A stretch of DNA of 64,000 nt from Opitutaceae bacterium (lineage in GTDB: Bacteria; Verrucomicrobiota; Verrucomicrobiia; Opitutales; Opitutaceae). The notes under the pieces are model-generated. The model was not told where the DNA came from, searched no databases, and was given only the letters and a program-made list of their open reading frames with translations. The position numbers and the translations under genes are program-made. Positions 3,881 through 6,717 of the stretch are shown piece after piece. The DNA lies in NCBI GenBank assembly GCA_015075305.1, contig JABTUS010000001.1, positions 310,001-374,000 of the forward strand. Direction: 5' to 3'. Position 1 is the first letter of the stretch, and each line of letters begins with the position of its first letter.

Positions 3881-4867
3881 CTACGGCAGCGAGGCCCTGA
3901 GTGAGTCATGCATCGCCTGCAAATCGCTGATCGAGCGCGTGGCAAGGTTCTCAGCCGGAGTCGCGTCGCGACCCAAAAGGTCCTGCAAGAGCTGAATCCT
4001 CCCAATCAACTGACCGATTTGCTGGCCCTCCCTGCGCCCCTCCTGCTGACCTTCCTGTCGGCCTTCCTGTCTGTACTGTTCGGCAATGGTCATGGCGTTG
4101 TCCTTGATGGCTGCTGTTTTGAGTGTGTTCAGTTTCCGATTGATCGTCGTTTTGTCAAATTCACCCACGCCCACGATATAACGCAGTATCCGCTCCATGT
4201 GGCTGGGTGTAAGGTCAAGCAGGAGCGCTTCGTCCCAAACAAGGTCACTCATCAGATCTCCCGTTCGTTCAGCCTTGAGCACCCGCAGTGTGAGCGTGCC
4301 CAGCGACGTTCCGGTGATTTCCGTGAAGGGCAGCGCCGCCAATTGGATCAGCCCATACATGAAATCAGGCACGTACTGGGATAGGGGAGATTTTCCGAAA
4401 TCAGCGGCTTCGCCTGAAGCATCGAGCAGGGCATGAAAACGAGGAACAATTGACCAAGCCTGATTGTTCTGCGCCAAGACCATCGGCAGGATTGGCGGCA
4501 ATGCCAGTGACAACGGATGAGCCGCACGATACTTCTGCCAGATCCGGGTTTGGTAGGTCAGCAGGCGCAAAGCAATCCATCGGTCCTCGCGGCGCTGATG
4601 CTCAAAAAGCAGGTAGACAAATGCATCAGCTGTGGCTGATATCCGATGAGCGGCTTGCAGCCCTACCCGATAGAGCAGATCACTTTCCGAGGAACGAAGT
4701 TCATCGTCGATAAATGAACCTGATTCCAATCTCAGACTTTCCCAGTCAATGATCGCAACGATCGCCGGCGGAAAATGCGTCCGGAAAAATGCCCTGGCGG
4801 TGTTCCTGTCCCCAAAACTCGATTTGAAGAGCTTGTCATGGGGCTGGTGCAAACGTTCGTCCGGCAT
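3881..4867 (-). CDS. Rpn-family recombination-promoting nuclease (PD-(D/E)XK)
   Basis: A 328-residue protein of the Rpn/transposase_31 family, PD-(D/E)XK DNA endonucleases that promote RecA-independent recombination. It begins with the family hallmark PHDKLFKSSFGD (residues 9-20). The putative catalytic residues are Asp63 in SESDLLYRV and Glu89/Gln91 in FEHQRRED, followed by LRLLTYQTRIW. The C-terminus has the usual low-complexity (R/Q)EGQ run near residue 275 before a short coiled segment. The ATG at 4867 is the natural start. It lies beside an IS110 element and two toxin-antitoxin pairs in a repeat-rich patch, consistent with a mobile accessory gene rather than a part of polysaccharide synthesis. 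Confidence 0.88.
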   Translation of the reverse strand: MPDERLHQPHDKLFKSSFGDRNTARAFFRTHFPPAIVAIIDWESLRLESGSFIDDELRSSESDLLYRVGLQAAHRISATADAFVYLLFEHQRREDRWIALRLLTYQTRIWQKYRAAHPLSLALPPILPMVLAQNNQAWSIVPRFHALLDASGEAADFGKSPLSQYVPDFMYGLIQLAALPFTEITGTSLGTLTLRVLKAERTGDLMSDLVWDEALLLDLTPSHMERILRYIVGVGEFDKTTINRKLNTLKTAAIKDNAMTIAEQYRQEGRQEGQQEGRREGQQIGQLIGRIQLLQDLLGRDATPAENLATRSISDLQAMHDSLRASLP

Positions 4868-5010
4868 TCATCGATCAGCTCGACTGAACGTAGACGAAAT
4901 ACAAGGCATTAATGCAATTGTAATGCGACATTGCCAGCAACCTCCGATATCACCCATCTCAATCTCCCCACTTCTCAGTGTCCTCCAGCCTCTCCGCGAT
5001 CTCCGCGTCT
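4868..5010. repeat. Mosaic repeat remnant interrupted by IS110
   Basis: An upstream AT-richer spacer leads into the left half of a reverse B module (about 4990-5010, ending CTCCGCGTCT). The right half, CCGCGTGAAACTCTCCG, resumes at 6257. Joining 5010 to 6257 restores the repeat as found uninterrupted at about 296-332. Confidence 0.8.
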
Positions 5011-5040
5011 TGTATGTCCAATTTCGTGAACAAGAGGGGA

Positions 5041-5102
5041 GTGACAAAGGCCGCCGCCGAGAATGGGCCATTTGGCTCGTCGGAGGCGGCGGCCTTTGTC
5101 AC
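5041..5102. repeat. 18-bp perfect inverted repeat inside the IS110 left end
   Basis: GTGACAAAGGCCGCCGCC (5041-5058) is exactly complementary to 5085-5102, with a 26-nt spacer. It lies in the left non-coding region, upstream of the transposase. It could be the 5' stem of the guide RNA, or a barrier to transcription entering from outside. Confidence 0.85.
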
Positions 5103-5307
5103 AGTAGATTTGGCCTTGGATGAGCGAACCTCTTCCAAGGTCGCCAGGGCGCGTGTTCGGCCGGCCGCCGGACACGCGGCAGGGCAGGAAGATCGATTCG
5201 CGCCAAGAGGCTCGACCTCGCCGCGGAGCAATGATCCCTGTCCTGTGCCTGGTTTAACTCGAACCGCTGGAAGAGCCTTGAGCTCGCATCGCAAGAAGGA
5301 GCATACC
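5103..5307 (+). ncRNA. Candidate IS110 bridge RNA
   Basis: The left non-coding region upstream of the transposase contains, in the order known for the IS621 bridge RNA, four short stretches matching target and donor. These are CGCGT at 5150-5154 (same as the target left flank, 5004-5008), CACGCGG at 5173-5179 (complement of the target right flank, 6257-6263), ACCGCTG at 5263-5269 (same as the IS right end, 6248-6254) and CATAC at 5302-5306 (complement of the IS left end, 5012-5016). The first pair lies in a hairpin (CGCGTGT 5150-5156 with ACACGCG 5172-5178). Three matches abut the CT core; the left-end match is one base away. The RNA boundaries are not known. Confidence 0.5.
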
Positions 5308-6243
5308 ATGCCCGCAAATGTGTCACCCAACTACGTTGGACTGGATATTTCCAAGGACCAACTCGATTACTGCTTGAGCGAAACTGCTGAAGGCCGCTGT
5401 GCCAACACCCCCGCAGGTCGCTCTGAACTCATCCAAAGAATCCGCTCCGTACCAAATCCCCGCGTTGTGTGCGAAGCCAGCGGCGGCTACGAAAAGCTAA
5501 TCGTCGCAGAACTGCTGCAAGCGGGCATTGAGGTGTGTGTCGTGCAACCAGGACGATGTCGCGCGTTTGCCTATGCGGAGGGCTTGCTGGCTAAGACCGA
5601 TCGTATCGATGCCCGCATGCTGCGTCGCTTCGGGGAGAAAATGAATCCGCGCCTGGCTGTGCCGGCCGATCCGGCTTCGGCTACCTTGCGCGAGATGCTT
5701 GAACATCGCCGGCAATTGACCACCCAACTCGTGGAGGTGAATGCCCGCCTCTCCTTGGCTGGACCGACCCTGCGACACCTGCTGACGACCCAACAGAAGT
5801 TTCTCGCTCAGCAGATTGCCAAGGTCGAAAAACTCATCGACCAACTCATCGATCAGGATCCCGATCTCAAGCACAAGTCTCAACGGCTCCAGCAGGTCAA
5901 GGGCATCGGACCTGTGCTCGCTGCCACGGTTCTGGCCTACGTCCCTGAATTGGGCCAGATCGAATCCGCGCAGCTCTCGGCCTTGCTGGGTGTCGCACCC
6001 CACGCGGCCGATTCCGGCCACACCTGCGCACCCCGTCACGTACGCGGCGGGCGCGCACCCGTCCGACATGTCCTGTACATGGCCGCCGTCTCGGCATCCC
6101 GCTCCAATCCAATTCTCGCCGCCTTCTACCAGCGACTTCGCGCCAACGGCAAACCAGCCAAGGTCTGTCTCGTCGCCGTCATGCGGAAGATGGCCTGCCT
6201 GATGAATCATCTCCTTCAAGACCCTGATTTTGTTCTTGCCTGA
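5308..6243 (+). CDS. IS110-family transposase (DEDD recombinase)
   Basis: A 311-residue transposase starting at the ATG at 5308, preceded by AAGAAGGAG. The upstream frame is open to 4978 but crosses the IS end, so it is not used. The N-terminal RuvC-like domain shows the DEDD tetrad Asp13 (VGLDISK), Glu56 (VCEASGG) and Asp98/Asp101 (KTDRIDARM). The C-terminal domain has a helix-hairpin-helix (KGIGPVLAATVLA, about 198-210) and the conserved serine motif ADSGH (Ser236) followed by RHVRGGRAPVR. All expected catalytic residues are present, so it looks functional. It would cut and join at CT cores under guide RNA control. Confidence 0.93.
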   Translation: MPANVSPNYVGLDISKDQLDYCLSETAEGRCANTPAGRSELIQRIRSVPNPRVVCEASGGYEKLIVAELLQAGIEVCVVQPGRCRAFAYAEGLLAKTDRIDARMLRRFGEKMNPRLAVPADPASATLREMLEHRRQLTTQLVEVNARLSLAGPTLRHLLTTQQKFLAQQIAKVEKLIDQLIDQDPDLKHKSQRLQQVKGIGPVLAATVLAYVPELGQIESAQLSALLGVAPHAADSGHTCAPRHVRGGRAPVRHVLYMAAVSASRSNPILAAFYQRLRANGKPAKVCLVAVMRKMACLMNHLLQDPDFVLA

Positions 6244-6405
6244 AAACACCGCTGCTCCGCGTGAAACTCTCCGATTCCCGACCTCTGATATCCACCTTGC
6301 AATTGGCCTAATGACGACTGCGGGCTGGAAGCCCGAGCCACCCCCTCCCCCCATCGCTCATCCTCCGCGTCCTCGCGCCTCCGCGTTTAGCCCTCCGGCA
6401 TCTGG
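6244..6405. repeat. Mosaic repeat tract between IS110 and the ParE-like gene
   Basis: After the IS end the interrupted B module resumes. Then follows an 81-bp block (6261-6341) recurring almost exactly at 7113-7193, with the GACTGCGGGCTGGAAGCCCG motif. A D-like module (about 6379-6398) ends 7 bp before the ParE-like stop codon. Confidence 0.85.
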
Positions 6406-6717
6406 TCAGAATCCAGTCGATTGACCCTTCTTCAGCTCCGACTTGATCCATCGCGGATTTCGCCGGCAATCAAGCACGCGCCAGACACGGATTTCATCGC
6501 CAGAGATGTCATAGTAGACCCCGAACGGAAATCGCTTGGACAAAAGTCGATGATAGCCAAAGAGACGACGATGAATGCCGGCATAAAGGCGAAGCGCCTC
6601 AATATCGGAGTAGAGCGAATCGAGAAAATAGGATCCAACCCCAACCTGCTGTCGTTCATAGAAACGGAAGCCGTCCAACAAGTCGGCTTCCGCCAGGCTG
6701 AGTAGTCGAAGCGTCAC
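6406..6717 (-). CDS. ParE/RelE-superfamily toxin
   Basis: A 103-residue protein with the compact RelE/ParE fold signature: an N-terminal helix AEADLLDGFRFYERQQVG, a central HRRLFGYHRLLSKRFPFGVYYD segment and the strand-forming DEIRVWRVLDCRRNP near the end. Members inhibit gyrase or cleave mRNA; the sequence does not say which. It starts with GTG at 6717, and the GTGA overlaps the stop of the upstream antitoxin gene, so the two are translationally coupled. The pair sits between two direct copies of an 81-bp repeat block. Confidence 0.87.
   Translation of the reverse strand: MTLRLLSLAEADLLDGFRFYERQQVGVGSYFLDSLYSDIEALRLYAGIHRRLFGYHRLLSKRFPFGVYYDISGDEIRVWRVLDCRRNPRWIKSELKKGQSTGF

What the first reader, a model, noticed from the sequence alone, without database searches (positions are those of the whole stretch)
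5103..5307. Candidate bridge RNA with guides matching both donor and repeat target
Four stretches occur in the order target-left, target-right, donor-left, donor-right: CGCGT (5150-5154), CACGCGG (5173-5179), ACCGCTG (5263-5269), CATAC (5302-5306). They match, with the polarity known for the IS621 bridge RNA, the sequence next to the CT core at the target (5004-5008; 6257-6263) and the element ends (6248-6254; 5012-5016). Bridge RNAs are established for IS110; a guide aimed at a genomic intergenic repeat would be a natural multi-site programme.
Basis: partly seen in the sequence, partly recalled or inferred. Interest (0 to 1): 0.85.

Follow-up and report, generated by a model that had tools for sequence, protein, structure and literature searches.

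The report
IS110 bridge RNA, guides placed elsewhere

Summary
The element at 5011-6254 is an IS110-group insertion sequence with an IS621-like DEDD/Ser recombinase and a long left end encoding a predicted bridge RNA. The genome holds two identical copies, both in CCGCGT-CT-CCGCGTGA.

The "target guides" (5150-5154, 5173-5179) are the two arms of one 12-bp covarying hairpin; in homologues they match the flanks in 1 of 11 and 1 of 13 cases, the window itself each time. The "right donor guide" (5302-5306) is found in 1 of 17 and lies at the donor-loop closing stem. Only the left donor guide (5263-5269) stands.

Homologues place the right target guide at 5222-5228 (CGCGGAG, reverse complement of CT+CCGCG; 12 of 13 match their own flank exactly), the left target guide at 5197-5204 and the right donor guide at 5287-5295, as in IS621. 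The consensus fold covaries (40 of 61 pairs changed on both sides). Against: folded alone, this RNA pairs its two target guides with each other and does not show the donor loop.

In passing: the hairpin at 5041-5102 has a core that also occurs in IS256-, IS3- and IS21-type loci and microviruses.

The parts
5002..5008 (+). left target (LT) TCCGCGT, followed by CT core 5009-5010
   Evidence: the second copy has the same LT and core
5009..5016 (+). CT core plus right donor (RD) CT-TGTATG, left end of element
   Evidence: CTTGTATG in 15 of 17 close homologues (this motif was also used to find their left ends); the six G150 copies fix the boundary independently
5013..5018 (+). weak -10-like TATGTC of the promoter inferred at the RE-LE junction of the circle; -35-like TTGCCT at 6236-6241, spacing 17
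   Evidence: TTG at that spacing in 14 of 17, TATGTY in 16 of 17 homologues
5041..5102 (+). 5' hairpin with conserved core CGAGAATGGG...CTCGTCGGAG
   Evidence: helix 1: 13 of 16 pairs changed on both sides, helix 2: 3 of 6; wider distribution
5143..5148 (+). P1 stem 5' strand, pairs with 5248-5253
   Evidence: helix 3: 98% paired but no change on both sides; shares 5251-5253 with the donor-loop closing stem
5150..5178 (+).
   Evidence: helix 4: 10 of 12 pairs changed on both sides
5179..5246 (+). target-binding loop: stems 5179-5187/5238-5246 and 5191-5194/5233-5236, apical hairpin 5207-5210/5216-5219
   Evidence: helices 5-7: 9 of 9, 2 of 4 and 2 of 4 pairs changed on both sides
5197..5204 (+). 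left target guide TTCGCGCC (LT7 plus core C)
   Evidence: 77/88 own matches (wobble and three registers allowed) vs permuted mean 57.4, 0 of 200,000
5222..5228 (+). right target guide CGCGGAG = reverse complement of CT+CCGCG
5251..5307 (+). donor-binding loop; closing stem 5251-5254/5304-5307 (3 of 4 pairs in the window), apical stem 5273-5276/5282-5285; contains Shine-Dalgarno-like AAGGAG 5296-5301 and abuts the start codon
   Evidence: not in the single-sequence fold
5287..5295 (+). right donor guide CATCGCAAG, pairs discontiguously with CTTG-ATG of the left end
5308..6243 (+). IS110 recombinase, 311 aa, D13 E56 D98 D101 and S236
6248..6254 (+). left donor (LD) ACCGCTG, right end of element
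6255..6261 (+). CT core plus right target CCGCG

Best explanation
The window holds an IS110-group element, probably moved recently (two identical copies). As in IS621, the excised circle would rebuild a promoter at its joined ends and transcribe the left end into a bridge RNA: a 5' hairpin, a GGCC-loop hairpin, a target-binding loop and a donor-binding loop. In the target loop 5197-5204 pairs with the bottom strand left of the CT core and 5222-5228 with the top strand CT+CCGCG of the dispersed CCGCGT-CT-CCGCG repeat. In the donor loop 5263-5269 and 5287-5295 pair with the element's own right and left ends. The DEDD/Ser recombinase exchanges strands at CT. Shown by comparison: consensus fold, guides, boundaries, catalytic residues. 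Inferred: transcription, opening of the guide loop by the protein, binding, catalysis.
For: Recombinase: both IS110 Pfam domains; the two PDB sequences matched at E up to 0.001 are ISCro4 and IS621; five catalytic positions kept. Two identical copies at the same target. Consensus fold: 97.4% of cells paired, 40 of 61 pairs changed on both sides, 0 of 500 shuffles. Right target guide: 12 of 13 exact, nine different guides; beyond the alignment 22 of 29 loci vs 6 of 740 cross pairs. Left target guide 77/88 vs 57.4. Left donor guide in 29 of 29 loci with a recognised right end. Right donor guide follows the published IS621 pattern. A covariance model, trained on 15 of these RNAs, hits 37 of 252 family genomes.
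Against: No RNA data. Folded alone, the window RNA pairs 5197-5202 with 5222-5227 (the two target guides) and lacks the donor loop; forcing open guides and the donor stems costs about 17 kcal/mol (-131.9 vs -148.8). The left target guide of this element has a mismatch and a wobble, and its core sits one base off the register of several relatives. Handshake pairing is inconclusive (7 of 11, p 0.11). Seven of 29 more distant loci lack an exact right target guide. The P1 stem shows no change on both sides and shares bases with the donor-loop closing stem. The -10 box is weak.
Confidence: 0.92

Rival explanations
1. One reading: bridge RNA at 5103-5307 with target guides 5150-5154 and 5173-5179 and right donor guide 5302-5306.
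For: Exact letter matches in order and polarity.
Against: The two target guides pair with each other in a helix with 10 of 12 pairs changed on both sides and in the single-sequence fold; neither follows the target in homologues; CATAC in 1 of 17.
Confidence: 0.02
2. The left end is only a structured leader regulating transposase translation, and the guide matches are incidental.
For: Shine-Dalgarno-like stretch and start codon lie in or next to the donor loop; strong 5' hairpin; the free RNA closes its guides on each other.
Against: Own-target matching far beyond permutation is not expected from a leader role alone. A regulatory role in addition is not excluded.
Confidence: 0.03
3. Bridge RNA with the corrected guides, but the 5' hairpin 5041-5102 is not part of its working fold: it is a separate element-end module with its own role. 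(A variant of the best explanation, not an alternative to it.)
For: The same core sits at IS256-, IS3- and IS21-type loci and in microviruses; the core pattern was found in 6 of the 25 sources whose bridge RNA was aligned, window included (some contigs end too early to tell).
Against: It lies downstream of the inferred junction promoter, so it would be in the same transcript unless processed.
Confidence: 0.45

Closest known systems
IS621 and its bridge RNA (IS110 group, E. coli)
   Same: Recombinase homology (103 of 308 aligned residues) and catalytic residues; RNA in the left end ending directly before the start codon; target loop then donor loop; CT core; right donor beginning CTTGTAT; discontiguous right donor guide (IS621 ATTTGCAAG, here CATCGCAAG); insertion into a dispersed repeat.
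   Different: Left end of 297 nt against a 177-nt RNA; extra 5' hairpin; 7-nt right target guide (IS621 4, extendable to 7 according to passages of PMC11208160); different target.
ISCro4 recombinase (PDB 9t56)
   Same: Best PDB sequence match, E 3.3e-41.
   Different: Not compared beyond the protein sequence.
seekRNA of IS1111/IS110 elements (PMC11187229)
   Same: RNA from the non-coding region with stretches matching both target strands (listing and passages seen).
   Different: Its elements were not compared here.

Membership tests
IS110 family element | DEDD (PF01548) plus C-terminal PF02371 domain with catalytic Ser | tested here: met
   (IS621 D/E residue numbers recalled; S241 seen)
IS110 family element | long left non-coding end and short right end (IS110 group) | tested here: met
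   left end 297 nt, right end 11 nt
IS110 family element | CT core shared by donor and target | tested here: met
   CT at both ends in the two copies here and in six copies of the G150 relative
bridge RNA | conserved fold with a target loop and a donor loop | tested here: met
   target loop; donor loop: closing stem with three pair types at one position, apical stem with one changed pair, so weaker; neither loop is open in the single-sequence fold
bridge RNA | target guides covary with target flanks | tested here: met
   at 5197-5204 and 5222-5228:
bridge RNA | donor guides match element ends | tested here: met
   left: 29 of 29 loci with a recognised right end; right:
bridge RNA | promoter rebuilt at the RE-LE junction | tested here: inconclusive
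   boxes with 17-bp spacing in 14 of 17, -10 weak; no RNA data
bridge RNA | handshake guides | tested here: inconclusive
   7 of 11, permutation p 0.11
bridge RNA | expressed RNA bound by the recombinase | not testable with these tools
   needs RNA sequencing and a binding assay

The most novel reading that the evidence does not exclude
The conserved 5' hairpin (5041-5102) is not a bridge-RNA part by origin but a portable hairpin module: core CGAGAATGGG...CTCGTCGGAG in a freely varying, base-paired stem. Unrelated mobile elements of this bacterial phylum (IS110, IS256, and IS3- and IS21-type) and ssDNA microviruses carry it, often at element ends. It would serve one shared task, for example controlling transcription that enters the element or is made from it; here it is fused to a bridge RNA.
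Probability: 0.4. Interest if true: 0.75.

Novelty: new member of a known kind. Interest (0 to 1): 0.42.

Why it matters
The family is a natural experiment on bridge-RNA retargeting: close relatives carry nine different 7-nt right target guides that match their own flanks, so the guide-to-target code can be read from genomes. It also shows how a letter-match search can mistake a hairpin for guides when the target is itself repetitive. The shared hairpin core, if its role is confirmed, would be a common part of otherwise unrelated mobile elements.

Tried and rejected
Rfam: for 4800-6500 only two sub-threshold matches, one of them (mir-4504, 19.9 bits against a gathering score of 104) on the 5' hairpin; for seven stand-alone hairpin loci three matches (a tRNA, two sub-threshold), none on the hairpin. 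Handshake pairing was tested and is not significant. A search for the core letters listed 8 of 447 papers, seen as a listing only; one search listed 8 papers, and passages of one (PMC3733652) describe end-tagged palindromes that did not seem to be this core. The idea that the hairpin always faces into the element was dropped: in L162 it lies in sense orientation at the 3' end of an rve gene.

Rows left out: L048, L049, L051 (same genome as L025) and L014 (truncated right flank) from the right-guide test; L048, L049, L051 and L010, L018, L020 (left flank missing at contig edge) from the left-guide test; 10 of 39 loci without a right end recognised by my donor patterns. The 29 loci come from 20 genomes; the 22 hits from 13, five of these loci from the genome of L025 and five being copies in one genome; L068 was tested with 6 bases only and L056/L057 have a low-complexity guide (AAAAAAG). 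The seven misses come from seven genomes. In one search one of 39 loci (L027) did not fit the pattern.

Full report
What is there. The element runs from 5011 to 6254 between two CT cores (5009-5010 and 6255-6256). Its gene (5308-6243, 311 aa) has both IS110 Pfam domains; the two PDB sequences matched at E up to 0.001 are the ISCro4 and IS621 recombinases, and D13, E56, D98, D101 and S236 align with the catalytic residues of IS621 (103 of 308 aligned residues identical; D/E numbers of IS621 recalled). The genome has one more, identical copy on another contig, and both lie in CCGCGT-CT-CCGCGTGA.

Observation. The four stretches exist at the stated places. Dinucleotide shuffles of the left end give all four in order in 0 of 5000, but the two target matches are one event: they are the arms of a hairpin, and the target is a CGCGT repeat.

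Homologues. Protein searches found related elements in 44 of 252 family genomes (E up to 1e-40), in 13 of 384 class genomes (E up to 1e-60) and in three genome records named Opitutia, Opitutaceae and Verrucomicrobia (a fourth match was 29% identical). Seventeen left ends of the close clade were aligned (A1); their starts had been located by the CTTGTATG-like motif. A structure taken from their RNAalifold consensus gave 97.4% of cells paired, 40 of 61 pairs with changes on both sides and 0 of 500 shuffles as good; sliding the partners by 1-3 columns dropped pairing to 32-42%. The structure came from the same alignment, which favours it on pairing.

Single-sequence fold. The window RNA folds 7 standard deviations below shuffles. 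The open two-loop form therefore rests on the homologues and, by inference, on the protein.

Target guides. For 13 elements with a readable right flank (nine different guides), the 7-mer at the position of 5222-5228 is the reverse complement of CT plus the first five bases of the element's own flank in 12 and differs by one base in the other, L024, of whose six copies two match exactly. The next best column has 0 of 13 exact. Swapping targets among elements gives 55.1 of 91 on average against 90 observed. Outside the alignment, 22 of 29 loci have the exact guide upstream of the donor guide, against 6 of 740 cross pairs; the hits are 13 genomes, the misses seven. The left target guide at 5197-5204, allowing three registers and wobble, scores 77 of 88 over 11 elements against 57.4.

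Donor guides. ACCGCTG at 5263-5269 equals the right end of the element. In all 29 further loci with a right end recognised by donor-like patterns, its last seven bases recur in the left end, in four versions: ACCGCTG, ACCGTTG, ACAGTTG, AGAGTTG. In the close clade 14 of 17 have the exact letters. The right donor guide is 5287-5295: CAAG pairs with CTTG, a G faces T, one base is left out and CAT pairs with ATG. This resembles the pattern reported for IS621 (A157-U158/C162-G165; PMC11208158, passages). L049 has CTTATATG with TATAATAAG, a compensated change, though L025 has that guide with CTTGTATG (G-U); L056 has CTTGTAGG with CTACAAG. CATAC (5302-5306) occurs in 1 of 17; its place is the donor-loop closing stem GGTN/NACC, whose fourth pair is T-A, C-G or A-T in 14 of 17 and unpaired in 3, the window included.

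Comparison with IS621. The recalled 177-nt IS621 RNA was found at 100% in E. coli genomes; in the record read it ends on the base before the transposase start, as the donor loop does here. The hairpin at 5150-5178 has a GGCC loop and directly precedes the target loop, like the IS621 5' stem-loop (inference). A covariance model of 5143-5307 hits 37 of 252 family and 13 of 387 phylum genomes at E up to 1e-4, training genomes included. In 24 of 25 matches aligned to it the hairpin forms 9 or more of 12 pairs (L098: 1), an alignment that leans to the model. Seven relatives of another subgroup (L028-L031, L034, L035, L041) also match the model; alignments of four of them were shown, and none of these four has a good hairpin there.

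Target supply. The genome has 21 exact CCGCGTCTCCGCG sites, 3 TCGCGCCTCCGCG and 74 CGCGNCTCCGCGT sites; the window has 39 CGCGNCTCCGCG against 0.33 expected. A guide aimed at a dispersed repeat is thus real, as reported for IS110 elements and REP sequences (PMC11208160, section 5 read).

The 5' hairpin. A loose form of its core was found in 71 of 130 loci then held, copies and re-fetched loci included; the core pattern in 13 of 286 class genomes, in 41 of 240 genomes of the phylum and in 7 IMG/VR contigs; the reversed pattern was 0 in the genome rows shown. Of 30 neighbouring reading frames scanned, one per locus and chosen by me, 18 matched mobile or phage families: Transposase_mut 4, rve-type 6 (one below its cut-off), IstB 1, IS110 3, microvirus-type Rep 4; five matched other families and seven none. 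Ungapped stems paired in 7-18 of 18 positions over 38 loci (L197 has only 11 positions), six of them below 10, near the roughly 7 expected by chance (the expectation is my estimate). Its function is unknown; I rate a shared module with one task at 0.4.

Noticed in passing
5041-5102; loci L161-L197 and L131-L144: Hairpin core CGAGAATGGG...CTCGTCGGAG with freely varying stems occurs beside IS110, IS256, rve (IS3-like) and IS21 genes, 34-245 nt upstream of the replication gene in four microvirus-like contigs (L161, L163, L164, L167), and in palindromes with GAGTTATNCATAG...CTGTGNGTAACTC-like outer stems; no Rfam family reached its threshold on the hairpins searched.
   Followed up: partly
genome contig C1 299.9-346.5 kb (window up to 36459 and about 10 kb before it): 46 of the 74 CGCGNCTCCGCGT repeats of the genome lie in this 47-kb stretch, a strong local concentration.
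   Followed up: no
L079:1561-1690 (E. coli NZ_CP024240.1): An IS621 left end begins inside the left target guide of another IS621 left end, as if inserted there; the right side was not examined.
   Followed up: no
L018-L020, L022, L024-L026 left ends: In these relatives the likely recombinase start codon lies inside the donor loop, so that the bridge RNA would overlap the first codons (start codons not verified).
   Followed up: partly
4978-5307: The recombinase frame is open through the whole left end (421 aa in all), and long open frames occur in several relatives too; may be chance.
   Followed up: no
L095: A close bridge-RNA match (G139) stops after the target loop and shows no donor loop, perhaps a truncated or rearranged element.
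   Followed up: no
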